Position numbers and translations under genes: made by a program. Shown in pieces: positions 631 through 18,853 of a stretch of DNA of 20,857 nt (its first letter is position 1; each line of letters begins with the position of its first letter). This stretch comes from a virus. The DNA is taken from IMG/VR virus record IMGVR_UViG_3300027851_000501, positions 1 to 20,857 of that record; one strand, written 5' to 3'. The notes under the pieces are model-generated. The model saw nothing but the letters and a program-made list of their open reading frames with translations. It did no database searches and was not told where the DNA came from.

Positions 631-674
631 TTCGCTGCGCGTTAGGCTCTCTTATTCCTGAAAAGCGCAGCGAA
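631..674. terminator. Inverted repeat at a convergent gene junction (weak terminator candidate)
   Basis: TTCGCTGCGC (631-640) and GCGCAGCGAA (665-674) are a perfect 10-bp inverted repeat with a 24-base loop. The pair straddles the stop codon of the minus-strand gene at 642 and follows the plus-strand stop at 627. It could form a G+C-rich stem in transcripts from either side. No T tract follows on either strand, so a terminator role is unproven; mRNA 3'-end stabilisation is another option. Confidence 0.3.
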
Positions 675-2657
675 CGAGGCTGCACTTACCGCCCCCAGCA
701 TAAAGACAGCTACCATCGCTACGATCCATGATTTTACAGAGAAGCCCGAAACAACTTTTTCAGCTTTCCATAAAATGCTTTCAAACTGAGAAGGAGGTAC
801 AGGGTGCCATCCAGCATCAGAGACTGAACGCGCAAGTCTGCCACCATGCACAAAGTAAGCTTGCTCCGGCGTTGCTGGGTCAAGATTATCGGACTTGAGT
901 CCTCTCCAAGTGTAATTGAATGAGCCACCCCTGAGGCCTTTGGTCCATTCATTGCAGCGCCAACAATCACCTTCGCCTGTCGATCGCCAGTTTTCAACCC
1001 ATTCCCACAGGTTGCCACCCTGTTGAAGGGTTCCCATTGGGCTGGGGCTCCCGCCAAAACTCTCAGCTTCGGATATAAAAAAGGGCTCTCCTTCCGCAAG
1101 GCGATCACCGATCTGGTAATTTGCAGAGCCTGGTCCGCCTTGCCCCGGCGGAAAATCTGAAATCGTGGGATAAGCCCAGTATTTTGAACGTCCTTCACGA
1201 TAAGGGTCAAAGTATGCAGCCTTGTACCATTCATCGTCGCTCGGGATGAAGTAACGAGCGCCAACGTTGCGGGCCTTCGGCAACTTTGCTGATTCAAAGG
1301 TTGTACGATCGCCATAAGGAAAGGCTCTTGTGTCATAAGCCCCTATCGTTTCATTGCCTTCAGTAGTTCCGAGAATGGCTTTGCCGACAGTTGGACTGCC
1401 AAAATGTCGCCAGTTGGCCATTCTGGCCAATGCAAACCAAGAAATGTAATTTGCAGCCCTTTTGCCCCATCCCTGCTTTGCCGAAAATTGCCATGCTCCC
1501 GGTCTACCTGACCGTACGATTCCCCCACCAATACCCTCCTGCATGTCTTTACGAAAAAGGCCCGCCTGGTTGCCCTCTCTTGCTACTGCATTCAAAAACG
1601 AGGAATATTGATCGTTGGTAATTTCAGTCCGCTGTATCTCGAAATCATAACCGACATTGCCATGCATGCTCTGCAAATCAGGACGGTTGCCCGAATATCC
1701 CACTTTAACGAATTCAGCTTTCGCAAATCCTGAAGGATTAACTGCGACACGCTTTGAGTTGCTTAGCTTTGCAATTCGGAACCCAAAAGTTGCTATCTCG
1801 TGATCGGGCTTTTCACTGTCCGAGTAATCGGCCGCGGTTGATGTAGTGTTCATAAATAGAGAGCCACCCATCACCCTCTGATCACCACCAAGTTTGCTAT
1901 CCACCCACTCCATGACATTACCGGCCTGATTGAACGTACCGCTCATCGATGGGTAATAGCTTGTGACCGCAGTGAGATGTGGGAACGGGTTTGCAAAACC
2001 TGAACGATCAGACACGTTCACGCCGTTTCGGTTTAAGCTATCGGCGGGGGCAGAAACTGTTTCTGAACCCGTAATCCAATCTGCAAATCGCCCTGAGGCT
2101 GGATTGAAGTAAGCAGCCTTTGACCATTCATCACAGTTCGGAATGACGAAGGTGGAAAATACATTTCGTTTCGGTTCCCGGCCTCTGGTATCGTAGCTGC
2201 CGCTTCGGTCATCACCTTCTGTCCTGCCCGGGCCCGCCTCACCGACGGGACGGCTAAAGTGTAGCCAGTTAACATATCTGACAGCATCGAAGAACGAAAC
2301 GAACGTAACCGGAAGATCGGCATAACCCGGCTTTGGCTCGAACCGCACCCGGTCTTTAGCGGCTATCTTCACTATACCACCCCAAAAATGGGATGACATC
2401 AGTGGTGAGTAGAGCCCCATATGGTCGCTCCTCGATGCTACCGCATTTAAGAAGTCGGCATATTCCGAGTTGCTGACCTCACCTTGGCCGATGTAGAAAT
2501 CGTAAGTCACTTTGCCACATCGCCCTGATGGTGGCTTGGCCGTACCTCCGGAAACTAGAACAAGGTTTTGGTCCGCAATAGGCAATTTCGCGATTGCTTC
2601 TGGAGTGTAGATTAGGAGACCGATCGATGTGGCTACAAAAGCCCTGCCCCGGCTCAT
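642..2657 (-). CDS. Tandem FGE/sulfatase-modifying-factor-like (C-type-lectin-fold) protein with C-terminal membrane anchor
   Basis: The 671-residue product has a hydrophobic N-terminus (residues 7-23) resembling a signal peptide. Two tandem formylglycine-generating-enzyme-like domains follow (about 32-297 and 315-612), then a membrane helix (about 642-666) ending in FRNKRA. Both domains show family landmarks: EVSNSEYADFLNAVA and EITNDQYSSFLNAVA, VIPNCDEWSKAAYF and FIPSDDEWYKAAYF, GNVMEWV and GNLWEWV, then MGGS and RGGSF. The paired cysteines that catalytic FGE uses after the RGGS motif are not seen, although a CWRC motif lies just before it (565-568). A binding rather than enzymatic role is therefore likely. 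The start at 2657 has GGAG eight bases upstream. It is the last gene of the minus-strand series, 51 bases after the fibre gene. Sampled lines have somewhat lower G+C than the tail genes. It may be lysogenic-conversion cargo displayed at the cell envelope, or an unusual adhesin. Confidence 0.8.
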   Translation of the reverse strand: MSRGRAFVATSIGLLIYTPEAIAKLPIADQNLVLVSGGTAKPPSGRCGKVTYDFYIGQGEVSNSEYADFLNAVASRSDHMGLYSPLMSSHFWGGIVKIAAKDRVRFEPKPGYADLPVTFVSFFDAVRYVNWLHFSRPVGEAGPGRTEGDDRSGSYDTRGREPKRNVFSTFVIPNCDEWSKAAYFNPASGRFADWITGSETVSAPADSLNRNGVNVSDRSGFANPFPHLTAVTSYYPSMSGTFNQAGNVMEWVDSKLGGDQRVMGGSLFMNTTSTAADYSDSEKPDHEIATFGFRIAKLSNSKRVAVNPSGFAKAEFVKVGYSGNRPDLQSMHGNVGYDFEIQRTEITNDQYSSFLNAVAREGNQAGLFRKDMQEGIGGGIVRSGRPGAWQFSAKQGWGKRAANYISWFALARMANWRHFGSPTVGKAILGTTEGNETIGAYDTRAFPYGDRTTFESAKLPKARNVGARYFIPSDDEWYKAAYFDPYREGRSKYWAYPTISDFPPGQGGPGSANYQIGDRLAEGEPFFISEAESFGGSPSPMGTLQQGGNLWEWVENWRSTGEGDCWRCNEWTKGLRGGSFNYTWRGLKSDNLDPATPEQAYFVHGGRLARSVSDAGWHPVPPSQFESILWKAEKVVSGFSVKSWIVAMVAVFMLGAVSAASFAALFRNKRA

Positions 2658-9957: not shown

Positions 9958-10448
9958 TGCGGCCAGCCCGCCGTCACGTCGATTGCCAGCAACTCGGCCA
10001 TGTTGATTGCAGCTTCGATCTCGGCCCGGAATTCCCGCGCTCGCTCGTGACAGGCGTTCACATGGGTTAGGACAGCCAATGCCATCCCAATCATTTCATC
10101 AGCGTCGAGCGCAACCGTGCTGTTATCCAGCATCGTCCATGTCACCGAGTATGGTGCATTTGCGCTCTTGGCGATCAAGGCACCCAACGCCGCCCCCGAT
10201 ACGTTTGAGCGCGCGGCCTCATCGCTATCAACAACACCAAACGGGGTTGGTGCGCCAACGTCAATTTTCTCATTGCGTAGGTTGCGGGCTTGTTCCCAAA
10301 CGATCAGCCGGTTGCCGTCCACCGTCAGCGCCGAGGTGGCCAAAGCCCGCTCGCCCGGTCCCGCCTGCGCATCAAGCAATTCGGGCTGACATTGGCCCCA
10401 TTTAACCGGCGCTCCCGTGGCAGTGTCGAACACAACATATTGGATCAT
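9954..10448 (-). CDS. DUF4376-like phage tail-associated protein
   Basis: The 164-residue protein has an N-terminal beta-rich part (MIQYVVFDTATGAPVKWGQC). Its C-terminal half fits the DUF4376 pattern: an RNLRNEKID helix, GVVDSDEAARSNVSGAALGAL, a WTMLDNSTVALDADEM segment, then HVNACHERAREFRAEIEAA and the final AIDVTAGWP. Such proteins occur beside tail fibre genes in phages of alphaproteobacteria and others and may take part in fibre assembly or the tail tip. The function is not established. Its start overlaps the J-like gene by 4 bases (ATGA), and the next gene overlaps its stop in the same way. Confidence 0.75.
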   Translation of the reverse strand: MIQYVVFDTATGAPVKWGQCQPELLDAQAGPGERALATSALTVDGNRLIVWEQARNLRNEKIDVGAPTPFGVVDSDEAARSNVSGAALGALIAKSANAPYSVTWTMLDNSTVALDADEMIGMALAVLTHVNACHERAREFRAEIEAAINMAELLAIDVTAGWPQ

Positions 10449-13400
10449 CGTTTCGTCTCCATTGCGACAAGGGAGCGATGGGTAAGATTGGCCGAACCCC
10501 CGCTCGTTTGCAGGAATGCTTGGACTTTGTAGGTAATCGTCCCCGCGCTCGGCACATCGGTTATGCTTAGTGAGACGTTGCGGTTTTCATCAGCATAGGC
10601 CCAATTTTCGATTGGCCCTTGAATCACAGTTGCATCGCGCAAAATCCGGTATCGGATGATATCGAAAACGCCTGATGTTACCTGCGACGATTGCCCGTTG
10701 AACAAGATCAGGATTGGCGCGCCGATGGTCGTGATTGTTACGGACTGCACATCCACCCAAGCATCATCAACAAGGTTGACCGATGTGCTGGTGTAAGCGC
10801 TGCTTGTCAGGGTTACGGCGTTACCGGCGATCTTGAGCGTTGAAACAGTCAAGTCTTTGATGTTACCGGTGAATGCGATGATTTCGTTGGTGCCGACCTT
10901 CGCCGCAGTGATTGCGCCTGCTTCGATCTTGTCCGCCGTGATTGCGTTCGCCGCGATTTTACCAGCGACAATTGAGCCATCGACAACCATCGTCGCGCCA
11001 GCTGCTTCACGGACGCTTACGTTTGAGACAAACTGAGCGCCAGAAAGGGTGTTATTGCCTTCGTTATAGACGACAATCCGGCCATACGAGGCGTTGGCCG
11101 GAGGAGACACTTGGATTGCTTTGGTGGCAATCTCGCCGGGCGCAAAGCCGATGCTATGATCACCACCAACGTATGTATTAGAGACATTGAACCACTGGAT
11201 TGTTACCCATGCGGTTTGATTGGACGCATTCTGGCAGCCACATTTAAATTCATAGACGGTGCTGGGGACGACGCGGAAGCGGTTGTTTTTTTCCTGATCC
11301 TTAGCGTAGCAGTGATAGCGATTGTTTACATTGTTCATGCCAGATCGCCCAGACCAAAGAACAATGTAGCGATTTCCGACTGCTGCGTTTGCGGCAGCGC
11401 CATAGGCGTTGGTAGCGACCTCCTCTGTGTACCAGCCCGTAGCTGGCGCTACCAAGTCAGAACTGACAGTCGAAGCATTATCAATGACCAGCCATGCGGT
11501 GAGGTCGCGGAATTGAGGGTCAGGATGCAGGTTATTCGGTGCGACAAGCAGATGCTGCACACGGACTGCGTTCGCCGCGATTTCATTTGCTGAAACAGCG
11601 TTGGCCGCGATCTTACCCGCGACAACGCTATTGGCGGCTAGTTCGGTAGCCGAAATGGCCCCTGCGGCGACTTTCCCCGCGATGACAGATCCTGCCGCAA
11701 GTTCAGAAGCGGTGACGGCACCGGCTGCAATGTTTGCGGCGGTAATGGTGTCAGCCGCGATTTGCCCGGCTGTGATGGCACCGGCTGCGACCTTGGCCGT
11801 CGTCACCGCCCCGTCTGTGATTTGAGTGCCGACGATCTGGCCTGTCAGCTTGGCCGCGCTTATCGCTGCCAATTGGGCATCGCTTAGCTGTCCGGTCACC
11901 TTCGCAGCGGCAACGGCCTCGATTTGTGAATTGGCCAGCAGTCCGGCTATCTTTGAAGCACTCACAGCTTGTATCTGTGTGTCGACCAGCTGGCCCGCAA
12001 CGTCAGCCGCAGGAACGGCTGCCGTCCATGCCGTGCCCGTGTAGCGGTAAAGCTTATCGTCGACCTCATTGAACACCACGCGGCCCGAAAACAGGTTCGT
12101 GGAAGGCAATGCCGCGACGATCTCATAGCCGCCCTTCGCCTTGGAAAGCGACAGCACCTTATCGAACACGACGCCTGAATATCCGCCCGAACCAGTAGCG
12201 CGAATGGTTACGGTTGCCGTGTCCTCGCCAGCGTCAAAACCTGCTGTCACCGTGTACGTGCGACCCGAATAACCAATTGTCAGGGCTTGCGGGTTGGCCT
12301 GTGTTGAAAGCGTGAACGATGCGCTGATGTCGGTCGAACCGGCGAACACTTTGAAGTCGCCTGTCGCGCCCGTGTAGGACACCACGTTGCCGTTGGCATA
12401 GGCGAATAGCTGCACTGCCTCATTCGTCAGGTATGCGGACGTGGCGGGCGCGCCAGCAGCGCCGGGACTGCCATCTGCGCCTGGAGGACCGGGAGGGCCA
12501 TCTGCGCCCGGAGCGCCGTCCGCTCCGGGAGTTCCGATCACGGTCGAACTGCTGATGTCATCGCGCTGCTCTGCAGTCTGCGTCAGCGCGGCAGTTGGCG
12601 GTGGCACTGCTGTCCGCCCGAGGGCATAGTCGTGCTTCTCGGCTGTCTCCCCGAGAAGCACCAACCGGACCGTCATGCTTCCGGGTTCGATCACCCTGCG
12701 AAGGATAACAGCCTGAACATTCGACAAGCCTTCCTCTGGCAAATCGATATTCAAGCACTCTCCAGGACGGTACTGGCGAAGCCTGGGGCCGCACGAAAGC
12801 TCGATCGTCCCAAGCTCGCGACGCTCCAGAAGCTCGTATGCAGCCAGCTGGGCCGACTGGTCAGCGTTGTCGACCAGATTGTACTGGCGCTCTTCCTTCT
12901 TCTCTTCGCCGTCTTCGGTCACCGCTGTGCTCAGAACGATTGGCGCTCCGGCTGTGTATTCCCAGTTGTGGGCCCCCGATCGCCACTTCGGCACGATTGT
13001 GTTGATGCGCTCGCGGTAGCTGCGCATGGCGGTTATCGTTCCGCCTTGATCGGTCAGGTCGGCCTCGGTGATCGTGTCCAACGAAACTCTTGGCGCATGG
13101 TATTTGACCGACAAAACAGCGCCAGAGAATACAGGCTCTGCCCCGCCAGCTGCCATGATGTCCTTGAGGTTCTTCCAACGGTCATCTGGCTCAAAGATGA
13201 TGCCTGAGATCGTCCAATCGTTTGCGTCGCAGACATTTGCCCAAGCCACCATCGCTTCAAGGTCAATTGCCTCGACCGGCAGGCCGATGCCGAACGTCTT
13301 CTTGCCATTTTGGTAGCGGCCATAGGCGTAGGCGATTGCGTGAAGGGCTGGGTTCTTGGAGAACTGCCAAGTCGCCTCATTGTTTATGCGGTGCGCGCCA

Positions 13401-14074
13401 GCGCCTCCGGGATAGGTGCTGTCCAGTCGAGGGTCATATGTCTTGACGCCATCCATGATGGCACCAGTGTTAGGCAGCCCGCTCGCGAACTTCTTGCCAT
13501 CCTTGTCGAACTTGAAGTTCCAAAGCATCGCCGCTTGGCCAGACAGCTTGTTCGCTGCACCCCAGTTGGGGAAGCCAGACCAGAATGGAGTCAAGGCGGT
13601 TGATTCAGGGCAAGCCCCGAGCTGTTGATCCACGTCGAGGAAGCCGCTGTAATATGCACCGAGAGGCTCGAAGTCAGTCGTAGGTGCAATGAATCCTTGG
13701 ATCGGTCCGCCGCCAGAGTATACGACCACGCGCCCGAGATACGGGTTGGGGACATCTTTCAGGGTCGGACCATAGGCTGCTGTGTGCCTTAGGACGCCGC
13801 CGAAATAGGTCCGCCCCATTGCGTACGGCTGCGGCGGATCGACTTGTATCAGCAGCTGGTTGACTGAGCCTCTTGCCGGTGGTGGCTTGGTCAAAAGTTG
13901 GGAGCCGAATGATGCTGCAAGCCCAACAACACCAGCAACAGCAGCGATTGTTGTGAGGGTAGCTGCGGACGCCCCTAAGAATGTGCCTGCCACGCCCGCC
14001 AAAGCTGCACCGCCGCTGGCGACAACGGCGACGATGCCAGCCACGACGGCCACAACTTTAAGCACTTTAGACAT
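10445..14074 (-). CDS. Tail tip / host-specificity protein (J-like), 1209 aa
   Basis: This is the central tail-tip protein, expected to bind the receptor. It starts with an Ala/Gly/Val-rich hydrophobic region (about 1-62), as in other J-like proteins. The conserved tail-tip part follows (about 65-500: QPYAMGRTYFGGVLRH, VVVYSGGGPIQGF, AIAYAYGRYQNGKKTFGIGL, then a baseplate-like stretch ending near LVLLGE). Then come ten collagen-like Gly-X-Y triplets (514-543), a beta-rich part, a pseudo-repeat block (about 688-838), a probable carbohydrate-binding jelly roll (about 838-1028), a short second repeat block and a beta-rich end. A ribosome-binding site (GAGGG) precedes ATG 14074. The usual upstream neighbour in the operon is separated from it by a plus-strand gene. 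Confidence 0.85.
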   Translation of the reverse strand: MSKVLKVVAVVAGIVAVVASGGAALAGVAGTFLGASAATLTTIAAVAGVVGLAASFGSQLLTKPPPARGSVNQLLIQVDPPQPYAMGRTYFGGVLRHTAAYGPTLKDVPNPYLGRVVVYSGGGPIQGFIAPTTDFEPLGAYYSGFLDVDQQLGACPESTALTPFWSGFPNWGAANKLSGQAAMLWNFKFDKDGKKFASGLPNTGAIMDGVKTYDPRLDSTYPGGAGAHRINNEATWQFSKNPALHAIAYAYGRYQNGKKTFGIGLPVEAIDLEAMVAWANVCDANDWTISGIIFEPDDRWKNLKDIMAAGGAEPVFSGAVLSVKYHAPRVSLDTITEADLTDQGGTITAMRSYRERINTIVPKWRSGAHNWEYTAGAPIVLSTAVTEDGEEKKEERQYNLVDNADQSAQLAAYELLERRELGTIELSCGPRLRQYRPGECLNIDLPEEGLSNVQAVILRRVIEPGSMTVRLVLLGETAEKHDYALGRTAVPPPTAALTQTAEQRDDISSSTVIGTPGADGAPGADGPPGPPGADGSPGAAGAPATSAYLTNEAVQLFAYANGNVVSYTGATGDFKVFAGSTDISASFTLSTQANPQALTIGYSGRTYTVTAGFDAGEDTATVTIRATGSGGYSGVVFDKVLSLSKAKGGYEIVAALPSTNLFSGRVVFNEVDDKLYRYTGTAWTAAVPAADVAGQLVDTQIQAVSASKIAGLLANSQIEAVAAAKVTGQLSDAQLAAISAAKLTGQIVGTQITDGAVTTAKVAAGAITAGQIAADTITAANIAAGAVTASELAAGSVIAGKVAAGAISATELAANSVVAGKIAANAVSANEIAANAVRVQHLLVAPNNLHPDPQFRDLTAWLVIDNASTVSSDLVAPATGWYTEEVATNAYGAAANAAVGNRYIVLWSGRSGMNNVNNRYHCYAKDQEKNNRFRVVPSTVYEFKCGCQNASNQTAWVTIQWFNVSNTYVGGDHSIGFAPGEIATKAIQVSPPANASYGRIVVYNEGNNTLSGAQFVSNVSVREAAGATMVVDGSIVAGKIAANAITADKIEAGAITAAKVGTNEIIAFTGNIKDLTVSTLKIAGNAVTLTSSAYTSTSVNLVDDAWVDVQSVTITTIGAPILILFNGQSSQVTSGVFDIIRYRILRDATVIQGPIENWAYADENRNVSLSITDVPSAGTITYKVQAFLQTSGGSANLTHRSLVAMETKR
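10880..10984 (-). repeat. Second pseudo-repeat block in J (VAGKIAANAITADKI type)
   Basis: Coding repeats of about 8 to 10 residues (VAGKIAANAITADKIEAGAI, then TAAKVG) match the larger block at 11563-12013. The two blocks flank a roughly 190-residue probable carbohydrate-binding domain. Boundaries are approximate. Confidence 0.6.
11563..12013 (-). repeat. Long pseudo-repeat block in J
   Basis: About fifteen imperfect units of 8 to 10 residues, alternating small residues with a hydrophobic position (TAGQIAAD, TAANIAAG, TASELAAG, VAGKVAAG), make a fibrous segment. Such repeats occur in tail fibres and can form elongated trimeric shafts. The DNA repeats are similar enough to permit length change by recombination. 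Boundaries are approximate. Confidence 0.7.
12446..12535 (-). repeat. Collagen-like Gly-X-Y repeat in J
   Basis: Ten uninterrupted Gly-X-Y triplets (GTP GAD GAP GAD GPP GPP, then GAD GSP GAA GAP) are encoded in 90 bases. Collagen-like segments are known in phage fibres and fold as triple helices. This one would act as a flexible or trimerising stalk between the conserved tail-tip part and the distal receptor-binding part. Confidence 0.85.
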
Positions 14075-14116
14075 TTATGCCGCCCTCGGTATATATCGCA
14101 TCAGACCCACCGGGAG
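14066..14116 (+). promoter_or_regulatory. Candidate promoter and ribosome-binding site of the plus-strand moron
   Basis: TTTAGA (14066-14071), an 18-base spacer and TATATA (14090-14095) resemble a -35/-10 pair. GGGAG at 14112-14116 sits seven bases before the TTG start at 14124. The -35 part overlaps the first codons of the J-like gene in antisense. The motifs are imperfect, but spacing and order fit a stand-alone promoter for a gene that runs against the operon. Confidence 0.4.
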
Positions 14117-14123
14117 ACTGACG

Positions 14124-14543
14124 TTGCTGAATTTCTTGCTGCTTGCTGCCGCCACATGCGCCGATCCGACCACAGCAGCCGGAATGCGGGCGATCGATAT
14201 GGGTACGCCGTCTTGCGTTAAGCCAGTCCACCGCGCGCCGTTTAAGCCCCGCCCGATCACTGCTGCCGAGCAGGCAGCGATTAAGGCAAAAGCTGATTTA
14301 CTGATGTTCGATGGCCCAAGCAGCCGATGGCAATGGCCGCTTAAGCGCGACGCAGACGTCTACTGTGGCTTCGTCAATGGCAAAAACAGAATGGGCGCAT
14401 ACGTTGGGTGGACGCCCTTTTACATTTCTGGTGGCGAACTAGCTATCATTGGCGAAGGTGACAGGCGGTTTGGTTATGAATTGCAATGCGGAATGACGGG
14501 TTACATCCCCAAACCCGAATGGTTGTCTGACAAAAAACCCTAA
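14124..14543 (+). CDS. Small secreted protein, probable moron (139 aa)
   Basis: This is the only well-supported gene on the plus strand inside the tail operon. From TTG 14124 the protein begins with a short hydrophobic signal-like segment (MLNFLLLAAATCADP). The Cys follows LAAAT, so a lipoprotein is possible but the lipobox is poor. The middle is Pro/Lys/Ala-rich. A conserved-looking C-terminal domain follows, with VYCGFVNGKNRMGAYVGWTP, FYISGGELAIIGEGD and the second cysteine in FGYELQCGMTGY. Small periplasmic proteins with a similar NGKN..G.YVG.. motif occur in proteobacteria, from memory; I cannot name a family or function. It ends with a 4-base convergent overlap of the papain-like gene. 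A longer frame begins at 13860 but mirrors J coding sequence. Confidence 0.7.
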   Translation: MLNFLLLAAATCADPTTAAGMRAIDMGTPSCVKPVHRAPFKPRPITAAEQAAIKAKADLLMFDGPSSRWQWPLKRDADVYCGFVNGKNRMGAYVGWTPFYISGGELAIIGEGDRRFGYELQCGMTGYIPKPEWLSDKKP

Positions 14544-14947
14544 GCCCGCCACGCACGCTCAATAAGCAAAGCCTCCATCACGACCATGCGCGGCTGATCG
14601 TCGTGCCATCCCATGACCTTCCCGCCCACATTAACAACCAGCGCGCCAATGCCTGCTCCGTCCTGAAGCATCGCAACATCACCAAGCAGCATGGCCGCTG
14701 GCGGTATTTCAGGCAGTATAGCGTCAATCAGTTCACCGACATTCTCAGCGCCGCGCTCTTTCAAGGCACGCTTTGCGCCAAGCAGCGAGCGAATATCCGG
14801 TATCGTCGGCGGCTTGTGGCCCATCTGCACAAGATGGAAACGAACCATGTGAATGCAGGTGGAGCGCTTCGCCCAGTCGAACTTCTTCTTACCGAAGCGT
14901 TCCATCGTGGTCTGGGTCGCTTTTTGACGCCTGATCAGATCAGTCAT
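14540..14947 (-). CDS. Papain-like (DUF6950 / NlpC-P60-like) tail protein
   Basis: The 135-residue protein has Cys31 in STCIHMVRFHLVQMGH at the start of a helix. His115 lies in a beta segment (GALVVNVGGKVMGWHDD) after a GDVAML strand. This Cys...GD..... His order is the NlpC/P60 or papain-like layout, and the gene sits between hub and J genes, where siphophages usually encode a tail-tip peptidase. It may cleave or bind cell-wall peptide during DNA entry. Residue 31 seems suited as nucleophile; the third catalytic residue is not clear. ATG 14947 is chosen, with GAGAGG upstream and an 8-base overlap with the hub gene. ATG 14968 is possible. Confidence 0.7.
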   Translation of the reverse strand: MTDLIRRQKATQTTMERFGKKKFDWAKRSTCIHMVRFHLVQMGHKPPTIPDIRSLLGAKRALKERGAENVGELIDAILPEIPPAAMLLGDVAMLQDGAGIGALVVNVGGKVMGWHDDQPRMVVMEALLIERAWRA

Positions 14948-15551
14948 AGCCCAATCTGCCTCTCGCATAGTCGAATGCAGGGTTGTTGAAGTTAAAGCCG
15001 CCTGATGGTTGGTAGGAAGGCCTCGGAGCTTCCACGCCCCATGCGATGGATACCGTCAGCCCACTGGCCTCGTCATGGCCAAGTTCCCCCGGCCATATTG
15101 ATTTATGCCAAGACGAGTTCAGGCTGTTGCCATCGTTGCGCATGAACAGCCTTTCAGCGGTGGAAACCACTTCGGTGTCCAATGTCCGCGTTCCCTTGCT
15201 GAATTTCAGCGTCGTCTTGTCCAACTGACCATCAAACTGCAGCTCGGGCGTGCCCACCAGCAAACCGGTGTCGGGCGCATATTCGGCAATGTAAAACCGC
15301 ACGCGTGACTTCTGAAAGCCGGGCTGCGAAAGGTCTGCTGCCGCTGCCGCACTTGCCGGAATGAACGTCATGGAAAGCGCGGGCACTTCTTCACCTGCTC
15401 CTTCAGACAATGCTTCAACAGATTCCACCGTGCCAAATGTTTGATGCTCGGACAGGAACAAATCGCTGCCCCAATAGAAGAACCCACCGTCGCATAGGCG
15501 CACGGTTTCGCCGGGTAATTCCATGACCAACAAGCCTGTGAGCGCGACCAT
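14940..15551 (-). CDS. Baseplate-hub-like tail protein
   Basis: The 203-residue beta-rich protein starts MVALTGLLVMELPGETVRLC. It carries a WGSDLFLSEHQTFGTVESVE segment, then RVRFYIAEYAPDTG, and a C-terminal region with RTLDTEVVSTAERLFMRNDG, SSWHKSIWPGELGHD and SIAWG. These features resemble the roughly 200-residue tail protein found between the distal tail gene and the peptidase gene in many siphophages, of the DUF2163-like baseplate hub type. ATG 15551 overlaps the previous stop by one base (TGATG), with GGAG nine bases upstream. GTG 15560 is less likely. Exact family uncertain. Confidence 0.65.
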   Translation of the reverse strand: MVALTGLLVMELPGETVRLCDGGFFYWGSDLFLSEHQTFGTVESVEALSEGAGEEVPALSMTFIPASAAAAADLSQPGFQKSRVRFYIAEYAPDTGLLVGTPELQFDGQLDKTTLKFSKGTRTLDTEVVSTAERLFMRNDGNSLNSSWHKSIWPGELGHDEASGLTVSIAWGVEAPRPSYQPSGGFNFNNPAFDYARGRLGYD

Positions 15552-16147
15552 CAGCCCCACTCCTCAATCGTCACAGCAAGGCCAACATGGTGCGCTAGGT
15601 CCATTTGCCAGCCCCACTCTTCGCCCACCACAAACCCATCGATGACCGGTTGCGCCAATTTGATCACCGCACCGTTCGCAAAAGGAAACCTTAGCGCAGG
15701 CGTGATCTGCACAGCCGCCTTGCCGTCAGAACCAGCGGCGACAGTAGCCGCCACATTGTGCAAGAACGACCGCGCGCCATTGCTGACCGAGAACCAGTAA
15801 CCCTCTTTGATCTGGTAGCCGGCTGTCAGGCCCCTAATGTTCAATGTCGTGCCTGACTGTGCCGCCCCGTCAACGACCGGAGAACCCGGCGCGCCCTGAT
15901 TGACGCCCAACAAAGGAAAGTCGGTGATGATGCCTTGCGTCTTGCCGCGTAGGAACCGGGAGACAAACACCATGCCCGTTTCCTTGTTGGGCATTGGCGG
16001 GAATTGCAGATCAATCCGAAAACGTGAACCAGGACGATCCAGACGTTGCGCCGCAGCGCCAGTGCCGGGACGTTGCATTGACCCGTAATCGATTAGCGTT
16101 GGGGTTGCACCGTTTGGCGCGGGCAGGTCGGGAAGCGTGACTGCCAC
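15551..16147 (-). CDS. Distal-tail-like protein
   Basis: The 198-residue protein follows the tape measure, where distal tail proteins are encoded. It starts at GTG 16147, which overlaps the tape-measure stop by one base (TAGTG). Motifs include LPDLPAPNGATPTLIDYG, the RPGSRFRIDLQFPPMP segment, FPLLGVNQGAPGSPVVDGA, GTTLNIRGLTAGYQIKEGYW, and LRFPFANGAVIKLAQPVIDG. This pattern matches a family of phage tail proteins that I recall from proteobacterial siphophages without a firm name. It likely forms the ring joining tail tube and tip. The role is inferred from synteny. Confidence 0.65.
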   Translation of the reverse strand: MAVTLPDLPAPNGATPTLIDYGSMQRPGTGAAAQRLDRPGSRFRIDLQFPPMPNKETGMVFVSRFLRGKTQGIITDFPLLGVNQGAPGSPVVDGAAQSGTTLNIRGLTAGYQIKEGYWFSVSNGARSFLHNVAATVAAGSDGKAAVQITPALRFPFANGAVIKLAQPVIDGFVVGEEWGWQMDLAHHVGLAVTIEEWG

Positions 16148-18558
16148 TAGCCAACCCTCCGAGATTGCGACCGCGCCGCCCGTGCGCCAGTTTCAGCCAC
16201 ACTGGCTCCAATCAGCATAGGAGCCGCGCTTTGGACTGCACTTTGCGCCCGCCCGTCAACAATGGCTGTGAAGTATGGTGAAGGCACGATCTCCACCCGC
16301 GAACCGCCCAACGCCTCATTCGGAATGACTTGTGAGCCGCGCGGCAGGTTGACCAGTTCCGGCCCGCGTTCACCCACCAAGGCCATGCCGCCCGGCGCGA
16401 AGTTCGTGCCGTTTGCATAGCCTTTGATAGGCCTGGGAGTGTTGATATTGGTAGCAATCTTGCTGCCAAAGGCGCCGATTGACCCAAGCTGCAGGCCAAG
16501 GCCTACAACTGCGCTCAAGATGTCAAGGAAACCCCCGCCCTTGATCGCGCTGGTCATGGATTGCAGCGCGCCGATTGTGTCTTTGGCCATATCCGCAAAG
16601 GTCTTGGCAATAGCCACTGTGGCACCGCCCGCCTTCTTCTTCATGCCGTCCATGGCCTCGTTGATCTTGCTCATTTCATGCACGAAAGGGTCAGCCAATA
16701 TGAGCGGGATTGCCGAATCTGTCGGACGGTCTTGAAAGCCAAGCTGCTTCTTCCCTGCCTCTGCAAGTTCGGGCGTTATCAGACCTGCTTTAGCGCCGTC
16801 CGTCAGCTTCTTGAGCTTAGCCTGATATAAGTTCATCGCCGCAGCGTCAGGGAACAACTCATCAAGCAACGGCTGCAATTCTGCTGCTAGTTTCTGGAAG
16901 GCCTGCTTTGTGGCGCTGGTTGCCTTGCCCGCTTGATCAACCATCACAGCATCTAGGCGCAGCATTTGCGCCGCAATGCCATCCACCATGTCCGGGATAT
17001 AGGAATGGCCGACAACGGCATCGTACAGGCCAAAGAAGCCCTTTTTGACTGTGTCAATTTTGTCTGTGACACTCTTGAAGATGGCTGAAAGCTTCCCGCC
17101 AAGCCACTCATCAATCCCTTTGACCATCCCGCTAACATAACCGATCGCAGCCTGAGCCATCCCGCCAAGGAAGTTGCCAATCATCCCGACGAAGTGCTTG
17201 CAGAGGTCTTGTGCCGCCTGCAGAGCGCCACTGAAGTCGCCAGAGAACAAGCGCACGATGATCTTGATGGCATCGGTTATGACCTGAACAACTCCGACAA
17301 GGATGCCAGACAAGGCGCGCAGCACTCCTGGAAGAGCGCCGCCGAACGCCTGCAACATCACCTTGCCGTAGTTGCCGATCGCATCGATCAAACCGCTGGC
17401 GAATATGGCGTCCATGGCAGACTTCAGCGAAGCGAGTATCTCTGTGAGAGCGGGGCCAAGCGACGCTTGGATGGCAGTCCACATCTCCTTCAGCACAGGA
17501 GCGATCTTTTCCCAGTTGTAATAGATCAATGCACCGGCAGCAGCCAAAGCTGCGATCGGCACAAGGATTGGCCCAAGTGCTGCCCCAAGGCCGACAAGTG
17601 CCGCCTTGGCCGCAACAAGTATGCCGCCTTGGGCAAAGGCCGCACCCAGTACCGATAGGAACGGCGCCATGGCTGATGCCATAGCGCCGATGCCGATCAT
17701 CACAGGCCCCAGCGCCGCAGCAACCGCTCCAAATGCGATGACAGCTGTCTGCATACCGGGTGACAGCGTAGCGAAGGCATCAAGAATCGATGTCAGCGCC
17801 TCAGTGATACGCGGCAGCAGCGGTAGCAGCTTCGAACCAATTTCCTCTTGAAAGTCCGCCCATGACATTTGCAACGCTGCGAATGGATCGGCAGCCCGCA
17901 TAGCCGCGGCAGATCCACCAAATTGACGCTCCAACTCTGCAAGCATGATGGTTTGTGCACCAGCCATATTGCCGACTTTGGCCATGGCCTCAACTTGCGC
18001 GATCTGTTGATCCGTGAACTGGATGCCAACGCGCTTCATGGCATTAATGCCCTTTACAGGGTCATTTAGTGCCTTGCCCACCATCAGTGCAGCAGACTGC
18101 AAATCAGTGCCCATGCGCGCGGCGAGATCGACCGCAGCTTGCTGTGCGCGGTCAAACTGCGTGCTGGCGACATTGCCAAACGTCAGCATGTTCGCCGTGA
18201 CTTTGCGCAGGATGTCGTCGTCATCGTACAAAGACTTGCGCATGATCCCGGTGGCCAAACCAGAAAGCTGGTCACTGGTCCGTTGCGCGCCATCACCCAT
18301 TGATTTTAGAGCAGCATTGACCTGACCGATTGCCTCCTGGCTCTCAGCAGCCGCTTTGATCGATGATACCGCCATCGCAGCCAGTGGAAGGGTAACAGCA
18401 ATAGACAGCTTCTTGCCGATGTCGCCCATCGACTTTCCGATGTTTTCAATCCGCTTGGTGGAGGCGCGCAGCTCTTTTTCCGTCGCGCTCAAACCAGAAC
18501 GGAATTCGCCGGAATCCAGCCCCAGGGATATCAACAGCGAACCCAGCATCGTTGCCAT
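16147..18558 (-). CDS. Tail tape measure protein (803 aa)
   Basis: The tape measure sets tail length and enters the host envelope with the DNA. The N-terminus (LGSLLISLGLDSGEFRSGLS) and the helical part after it are typical. Phage tail families share the segment with LRKVTANMLTFGNVAST and DPVKGINAMKRVGIQFTDQQ. Residues about 269-344 are strongly hydrophobic (GAVAAALGPVMIGIGAM, then LAAAGALIYYNW). The C-terminal hallmark YANGTNFAPGGMALVGERGP, followed by ELVNLPRGSQVIPNE, is present. ATG 18558 has GGAAAGG upstream; an earlier in-frame start at 18576 lies inside the preceding gene. At about 1.5 angstrom per residue the tail would be roughly 120 nm. Confidence 0.9.
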   Translation of the reverse strand: MATMLGSLLISLGLDSGEFRSGLSATEKELRASTKRIENIGKSMGDIGKKLSIAVTLPLAAMAVSSIKAAAESQEAIGQVNAALKSMGDGAQRTSDQLSGLATGIMRKSLYDDDDILRKVTANMLTFGNVASTQFDRAQQAAVDLAARMGTDLQSAALMVGKALNDPVKGINAMKRVGIQFTDQQIAQVEAMAKVGNMAGAQTIMLAELERQFGGSAAAMRAADPFAALQMSWADFQEEIGSKLLPLLPRITEALTSILDAFATLSPGMQTAVIAFGAVAAALGPVMIGIGAMASAMAPFLSVLGAAFAQGGILVAAKAALVGLGAALGPILVPIAALAAAGALIYYNWEKIAPVLKEMWTAIQASLGPALTEILASLKSAMDAIFASGLIDAIGNYGKVMLQAFGGALPGVLRALSGILVGVVQVITDAIKIIVRLFSGDFSGALQAAQDLCKHFVGMIGNFLGGMAQAAIGYVSGMVKGIDEWLGGKLSAIFKSVTDKIDTVKKGFFGLYDAVVGHSYIPDMVDGIAAQMLRLDAVMVDQAGKATSATKQAFQKLAAELQPLLDELFPDAAAMNLYQAKLKKLTDGAKAGLITPELAEAGKKQLGFQDRPTDSAIPLILADPFVHEMSKINEAMDGMKKKAGGATVAIAKTFADMAKDTIGALQSMTSAIKGGGFLDILSAVVGLGLQLGSIGAFGSKIATNINTPRPIKGYANGTNFAPGGMALVGERGPELVNLPRGSQVIPNEALGGSRVEIVPSPYFTAIVDGRAQSAVQSAAPMLIGASVAETGARAARSQSRRVG

Positions 18559-18559
18559 G

Positions 18560-18853
18560 CTATTGCCTTTCCACACGTCGGATTGTCATCGGTGCACCGG
18601 ATGCCTTTATGGCTTTCAGCACGGCGAGCATTTCAGAGGGCTTTTGGCCCGATGTCTTGCGTAGGTATTTTGCCAGCGGGCCCAGCTTGCCCACCTTCGC
18701 AGCTGCACTGAATCGCGCAGTGTCATAAGCCAGTCGGATCGATGCTTCTGCTTCGCTTTCAAGCCGCTTGCGAACGCCTGCCATGATCGCCTGAAACGTG
18801 GCCAACGATTGGCGCCAGAACCCATCAGGTTCCAACCCGGCACTCACCCACAT
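18560..18853 (-). CDS. Tail assembly chaperone, C-terminal (gpT-like) part, read by -1 frameshift
   Basis: This frame encodes a 97-residue helical region, with LEPDGFWRQSLATFQAIMAG near the start and LAKYLRKTSGQKPSEML later. It lies directly upstream of the tape measure, where lambda encodes T of the G-T chaperone pair. Its frame is -1 relative to the preceding gene and is open from that gene's slippery site, with no stop between 18907 and 18853. ATG 18853 has no good ribosome-binding site. The real product is thus probably a fusion of about 213 residues made at low frequency. Such fusions bind the tape measure and recruit tail tube subunits. Confidence 0.75.
   Translation of the reverse strand: MWVSAGLEPDGFWRQSLATFQAIMAGVRKRLESEAEASIRLAYDTARFSAAAKVGKLGPLAKYLRKTSGQKPSEMLAVLKAIKASGAPMTIRRVERQ

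What the first reader, a model, noticed from the sequence alone, without database searches (positions are those of the whole stretch)
14066..14543. Plus-strand secreted-protein gene inserted between the tail peptidase and J genes
A TTG-started gene with a spaced GGGAG, a promoter-like TTTAGA-N18-TATATA and a signal-like N-terminus runs against the late operon, ending in a 4-base convergent overlap. Its placement in an otherwise conserved tail gene order is the signature of a moron expressed from the lysogen. The conserved-looking NGKNRMGAYVGWTPFY region suggests a real folded domain of unknown function, perhaps for superinfection exclusion or envelope change.
Basis: partly seen in the sequence, partly recalled or inferred. 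Interest (0 to 1): 0.72.

Follow-up and report, generated by a model that had tools for sequence, protein, structure and literature searches.

The report
Antisense moron slot beside gene J
In a tailed phage related to prophages of Sphingomonas-like bacteria, a small gene for an apparently exported protein lies backwards between two tail genes; relatives show that this spot is an optional slot filled by different small exported proteins that probably serve the dormant phage's host, for example by keeping rival phages out.

Summary
A TTG-started, 139-codon plus-strand ORF (14124-14543) lies between J (10445-14074, -) and a DUF6950 gene (14540-14968, -), with a 4-nt convergent overlap. It is homologous to PHROG 2320, a family of unknown function with no Pfam model, whose signature is DPxSAxF...CGxVNxKNxxGxYxG...C. 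ORF length alone is not significant (84/2000 shuffles); homology is what makes the gene real.

The slot is optional. In 160 related tail modules, 127 have the two tail genes touching (gap up to 40 nt). In 33 they are at least 298 nt apart, and 32 of those hold an antisense gene next to J. The cargo differs: lipoproteins of PHROG 914, a related 'YRQPDRPDD' family, a third small family, and PHROG 2320. A clean empty/occupied pair exists (L140/L147, 94% identical flanks). Occupancy needs 17 changes on the J tree.

PHROG 2320 genes elsewhere sit beside the tape-measure gene, often antisense; one PHROG 914 gene does too. HK97 carries morons in both equivalent slots.

Best explanation: a lysogen-expressed moron for a periplasmic protein, most likely a superinfection-exclusion factor acting at genome entry. 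Moron status is strong; expression and function are untested. No known fold matched.

The parts
14124..14543 (+). Moron gene, 139 aa, TTG start, TAA stop; PHROG 2320 relative
14124..14162 (+). Hydrophobic signal-like N-terminus MLNFLLLAAATCA (no basic n-region; degenerate lipobox-like AATC)
   Evidence: sequence; relatives with clear signal peptides or lipoboxes
14364..14408 (+). Family signature CGFVNGKNRMGAYVG; C81 invariant (pairs by hypothesis with C122 at 14487-14489)
14066..14095 (+). Weak promoter-like TTTAGA-N18-TATATA overlapping the start of J
   Evidence: not found by the stricter scan; group comparison
14112..14116 (+). Shine-Dalgarno-like GGGAG, 7 nt before TTG
   Evidence: SD-like G-rich sequences precede the cargo start in most occupied relatives
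14540..14543 (.). 4-nt convergent overlap of the two stop codons
   Evidence: same 4-nt overlap in several relatives
14540..14968 (-). Flanking tail gene, DUF6950 / phrog_2134
10445..14074 (-). Flanking tail gene J (phrog_5616 tail fibre protein, 1.2e-66)
14075..14539 (.). The moron slot: 465-nt interval between two genes that touch in most relatives

Best explanation
The gene is a moron: an optional, self-contained gene placed antisense in a permissive slot between the DUF6950 gene and J of a siphophage tail operon, so that it can be transcribed from the prophage while the late operon is silent. It encodes a small exported, probably disulfide-bonded periplasmic protein. Most likely it protects the lysogen by superinfection exclusion: it sits in the periplasm and blocks an incoming related siphophage at the tail-tip or tape-measure (genome entry) step, as HK97 gp15 and TP-J34 Ltp do. 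Shown here: the family, the optional slot, cargo exchange, orientation, and recurrence of the family beside tape-measure genes. Inferred: lysogenic expression, export, and exclusion as the function. I put moron status at about 0.9, export at about 0.8, and exclusion at genome entry at about 0.45.
For: Slot survey: 127 of 160 related tail modules have a gap of 40 nt or less; 33 have at least 298 nt. In 32 of the 33 (28 of 29 distinct) the gene next to J is antisense. Junction control: TMP|distal 0/124, hub|DUF6950 1/153, distal|hub 12/151 (the seven clearest hold a sense membrane protein), DUF6950|J 33/160. L147 (occupied) v L140 (empty): 93.9% and 94.4% identity on either side of the insert. 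Occupancy needs 17 changes on the J tree, at least 14 forced by supported branches. Cargo: PHROG 914 lipoproteins (15 loci; 14 match the family) and the 'YRQPDRPDD' family (9 loci), related to each other by profile; PHROG 2320 in the window and in L065. Purifying selection on cargo pairs (pN well below pS). PHROG 2320 genes beside TMP: at least 20 of 61 dereplicated viral loci, 7 of 7 checked TMPs confirmed, Gordonia phages antisense, Pkon1 antisense, ES18 gp20 annotated 'possible moron', and modules with a J related to the window's. A PHROG 914 gene lies antisense beside TMP in Mae-JY04. HK97 has gp15 between chaperone and TMP and 'reverse moron' gp23 between I and J. Antisense placement is described as characteristic of morons (PMC7067206); Ltp and gp15 act through the tail/TMP step (PMC10883804).
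Against: No transcript or phenotype. The promoter match is weak and there is no terminator. The start codon and signal peptide are uncertain. HK97 gp15, gp22 and gp23 show no evident sequence resemblance to the cargo (by eye). Apparent 'Cor' matches of PHROG 914 members cover only the signal peptide. No PADLOC match. PHROG 2320 also occurs on plasmids and in 41 of 298 genomes of the order, and near integrases, so its role need not be tied to tails.
Confidence: 0.55

Rival explanations
1. The gene is a lysogen-expressed moron, but it serves host fitness rather than phage exclusion: a periplasmic protein that alters the envelope or helps stress tolerance.
For: Slot cargo is varied and exported. 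PHROG 2320 relatives occur on small plasmids and near integrases, where lysogenic-conversion genes often lie.
Against: Recurrent placement beside tape-measure genes and J is easier to understand if the target is an incoming tail.
Confidence: 0.3
2. The antisense transcript itself matters: transcription into DUF6950 and the tail genes lowers leaky late-gene expression or acts as an antisense RNA against related phages.
For: No terminator between the gene and the DUF6950 gene, so a transcript would run antisense into it. An antisense RNA over tail genes excludes phage BTP1 in Salmonella (PMC7067206).
Against: Cargo proteins are conserved with purifying selection and differ between phages with similar flanks. 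Relatives beside TMP are often in sense orientation.
Confidence: 0.07
3. The gene is part of the lytic programme: a late-expressed tail accessory, chaperone or lysis factor.
For: It lies inside the tail operon; some relatives lie in sense orientation in tail operons.
Against: Opposite strand to the late operon, absent from most relatives, apparently exported, replaced by unrelated families at the same place.
Confidence: 0.05
4. The ORF is spurious, an open frame in a non-coding insertion.
For: Length alone is within reach of chance (84/2000 shuffles).
Against: Family match (7.2e-6), nine invariant columns in 58 relatives, confident predicted core, second member in the same slot (L065).
Confidence: 0.03

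Closest known systems
PHROG 2320 family (unknown function; e.g. Enterobacteria phage ES18 gp20 'possible moron', Gordonia phage gp15/16, Paracoccus phage Pkon1 p57)
   Same: Signature DPxSAxF...CGxVNxKNxxGxYxG and C-terminal Cys; signal peptides; positions in tail modules, often antisense
   Different: Weak-scoring member (7.2e-6); slot beside J instead of TMP; D-G-P-S-S instead of D-P-x-S-A
HK97 gp23 'reverse moron' between genes I and J
   Same: Antisense single gene in the equivalent place of the tail operon
   Different: No evident sequence resemblance; gp23 has no evident signal peptide; HK97 also has gp22 there and a terminator
HK97 gp15 and TP-J34 Ltp (superinfection exclusion at DNA injection)
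   Same: Small prophage-encoded envelope proteins of siphophages; gp15 shares the chaperone|TMP slot with PHROG 2320 relatives
   Different: gp15 is a predicted inner-membrane protein and Ltp is a repeat-containing lipoprotein of Gram-positives; no homology seen
PHROG 914 lipoproteins (unknown function)
   Same: Same DUF6950|J slot, antisense, small, exported, conserved Cys pair; also antisense beside TMP in Mae-JY04
   Different: Different family and predicted fold

Membership tests
PHROG 2320 | Profile match | tested here: met
   E = 7.2e-6, residues 61-102; typical relatives score 1e-11 to 1e-27
PHROG 2320 | Signature CGxVNxKNxxGxYxG with C-terminal Cys | tested here: met
   Invariant C81 G82 V84 N85 N88 G91 G95 C122 in 58 sequences
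PHROG 2320 | Exported (signal peptide or lipobox) | tested here: inconclusive
   Window N-terminus hydrophobic but short and uncharged; relatives clear
Moron | Present in some relatives, absent in others with flanks conserved | tested here: met
   33 of 160 occupied; clean pair L147/L140
Moron | Own promoter | tested here: inconclusive
   Weak site; strict scan none; group-level enrichment
Moron | Own terminator (common in lambdoid morons, absent in some) | tested here: not met
   None found in 13900-14700; convergent overlap leaves no room
Moron | Expressed in the lysogen | not testable with these tools
   No RNA data
Superinfection exclusion protein | Protects the lysogen against related phages at entry | not testable with these tools
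   No functional data; genomic context only
Cor (phrog_1119) | Homology beyond the signal peptide | tested here: not met
   Matches of PHROG 914 cargo cover residues 1-22 only; the window protein has no match
Known anti-phage defence (PADLOC) | Profile match | tested here: not met
   No match at E <= 0.1

The most novel reading that the evidence does not exclude
Siphophage tail operons have two recurrent antisense docking sites, beside the tape-measure gene and beside J, into which unrelated families of small exported proteins (PHROG 2320, PHROG 914 and its relatives) are exchanged; these form an uncharacterised, widespread class of periplasmic superinfection-exclusion proteins that target tail components of incoming phages.
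Probability: 0.35. Interest if true: 0.8.

Novelty: new variant of a known kind. Interest (0 to 1): 0.6.

Why it matters
Morons, including a reverse moron between I and J of HK97, are known. What appears undescribed in the papers I could search is a lineage-wide antisense slot beside J whose cargo changes between unrelated exported families, and the link of two families of unknown function to the same two tail positions. If the exclusion reading is right, gene position would predict a class of exclusion proteins and their targets, and dozens of candidates become directly testable.

Tried and rejected
Cor homology of PHROG 914 cargo was rejected: the matches cover only the signal peptide. ORF length as evidence was rejected. 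No Pfam or PADLOC match for the window protein. No PDB sequence match. No convincing PDB fold match for the window model or for the PHROG 914 model; among predicted viral structures, one uncharacterised phage protein matches the window model (5.8e-4). The 61-aa minus-strand frame has no homologue in the related loci beyond the sister contig. No tRNA or Rfam hit in the window. The 18-sequence alignment was too diverse to scan with and a smaller one was used. The literature searches found no description of this slot.

Full report
What is there. The window is a 20,857-base virus record. Its tail genes run on the minus strand in the order tape measure (TMP, 16147-18576), distal tail protein (15551-16147, phrog_1302), hub (14940-15560, phrog_2048), DUF6950 gene (14540-14968), J (10445-14074) (TMP by size, position and similarity to confirmed TMPs). 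The reported ORF lies between the last two on the plus strand: TTG 14124 to TAA 14543, 139 codons, GGGAG 7 nt upstream, and a 4-nt convergent overlap with the DUF6950 stop. DUF6950 stands where a tail-tip peptidase is often found, but no model here shows peptidase activity.

Is it a gene? Length alone does not prove it: 84 of 2000 dinucleotide shuffles of the interval reach 139 codons. Homology does. The protein matches PHROG 2320 (7.2e-6) and, more weakly, several related PHROGs, all of unknown function, and typical relatives score the same set strongly. No Pfam, NCBIfam or PADLOC model matches. In 58 aligned relatives D63, C81, G82, V84, N85, N88, G91, G95 and C122 are invariant. AlphaFold2 gives an alpha-beta-beta-beta-beta-alpha domain, with block means of 88-93 over residues 41-70 and 81-110 (80 at 71-80, 75 at 111-130); the first 30 residues are uncertain (mean 77.4, pTM 0.62). 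No solved structure matches convincingly.

The slot. A profile of J found 80 loci in bacterial genomes, nearly all Alphaproteobacteria and mostly Sphingomonadales, and 80 in viral contigs. In 160 loci (these searches plus a few phage records) with both flanking genes, the DUF6950-to-J gap is bimodal: 127 at 40 nt or less, often a 4-nt overlap, and 33 at 298 nt or more. Of the 33, 29 are distinct; the gene next to J is antisense in all but L036. On the J phylogeny, occupancy needs 17 changes among 145 distinct J sequences, at least 14 forced by supported branches (quick tree, so branch detail is approximate). L147 and L140 are about 94% identical on both sides of a 398-nt insert. Where the host is named, occupied loci are all in Sphingomonadales. 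The slot is special: TMP|distal has 0 of 124 insertions, hub|DUF6950 1 of 153. Distal|hub has 12 of 151; in the seven clearest the cargo is a sense-strand membrane protein.

The cargo. Fifteen loci carry small proteins, 14 of them with a lipobox, with two invariant cysteines; 14 match PHROG 914. Nine carry a 'DVERCLID...YRQPDRPDD' exported protein with no PHROG match; profile comparison links the two (94% probability). Two carry a third family (L035, L046). PHROG 2320 occurs in the window and in L065, where it follows a PHROG 914 gene. The window's nearest relative, L010 (84% J identity), has the YRQPDRPDD family, and so does the more distant MT835566, so cargo has been exchanged within an otherwise similar module. 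Five cargo pairs show far fewer nonsynonymous than synonymous changes per site. Predicted folds for PHROG 2320 and PHROG 914 differ in order of elements, and the PHROG 914 model has no convincing PDB match.

The family elsewhere. Among 78 viral loci with a PHROG 2320 relative, a TMP is the immediate neighbour in at least 20 of 61 dereplicated ones; seven of seven neighbours checked by PHROGs are TMPs. Orientation is antisense in L210-L217, L225, L248 and L258, and in Gordonia phages (one of 41 similar records examined), and sense in others. ES18 gp20, annotated 'possible moron' with its own terminator, lies just before TMP; Pkon1 p57 lies antisense after TMP in the order of the late genes' neighbours; KpLi5 has a homologue between tail-tip genes K and I, and Fraca has one after the equivalent of K. 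Within the J-related set, L020, L086, L088, L059 and L062 have the gene at TMP, and L085 just after it (TMP in some by size and position only). A PHROG 914 gene lies antisense between a tail protein and TMP in Mae-JY04. So two families share the same two tail positions. Relatives also occur on plasmids, near integrases and in 41 of 298 genomes of the order.

How it most likely works. Antisense placement in the late region is described as characteristic of morons (PMC7067206), since a separate promoter can serve the lysogen. In occupied loci the antisense 5' end of J scores higher for promoter-like sites than in empty loci (6.9 v 6.1, p = 7e-6; the control region is not exactly equivalent), but the window's own site is weak. 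The protein is probably exported: relatives have signal peptides or lipoboxes, though the start positions for the viral set were chosen to include a hydrophobic N-terminus, and 23 of 78 had a lipobox-like match. HK97 gp15 and TP-J34 Ltp block DNA injection and are overcome by changes in tail tube or tape-measure genes (PMC10883804). HK97 carries gp15 in the chaperone|TMP slot and gp22 and 'reverse' gp23 between I and J. I therefore favour superinfection exclusion at genome entry. This last step is inference from position, export and analogy.

Limits. No transcript, localisation or phenotype data. The window lacks a terminator for the gene. Apparent Cor matches cover only signal peptides. Slot counts depend on the J profile and may miss distant modules. 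The literature library holds only open-licence papers, so absence of a description is weak evidence.

Verdict. Observation confirmed; moron reading strong; exclusion plausible but untested. New variant of a known kind, interest 0.6.

Noticed in passing
L126, L124, L044, L053, L043, L082, L061 (distal|hub junction); L036 and L070 (DUF6950|J slot, sense strand): A second optional slot holds a sense-strand, multi-helix membrane protein family ('NGGALVALFTFIGN...LSQDQFY') of unknown function; similar proteins lie on the sense strand in the DUF6950|J slot of L036 and L070.
   Followed up: partly
L010 5746, L147 2438, L101 5319: In three occupied loci J appears to begin with ATT behind a strong GGAGG-like site, where empty relatives have ATG.
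   Followed up: no
window 642-2657 (-): Protein with two FGE-sulfatase-like regions and a C-terminal hydrophobic stretch, downstream of the tail-fibre genes.
   Followed up: no
L021/L151 5099-5590 (+), L024 1421-1996 (+); L106 5205-5645 (-): A further gene family ('VVGESxY/F') shares the slot with the lipoproteins, in either orientation.
   Followed up: no
L027 5133-5396 (-); L150 5262-5965 (-): Extra small exported proteins in the slot, one very rich in cysteine.
   Followed up: no
L006 437-895: A 2.6-kb Klebsiella plasmid with three annotated genes carries a PHROG 2320 homologue.
   Followed up: no
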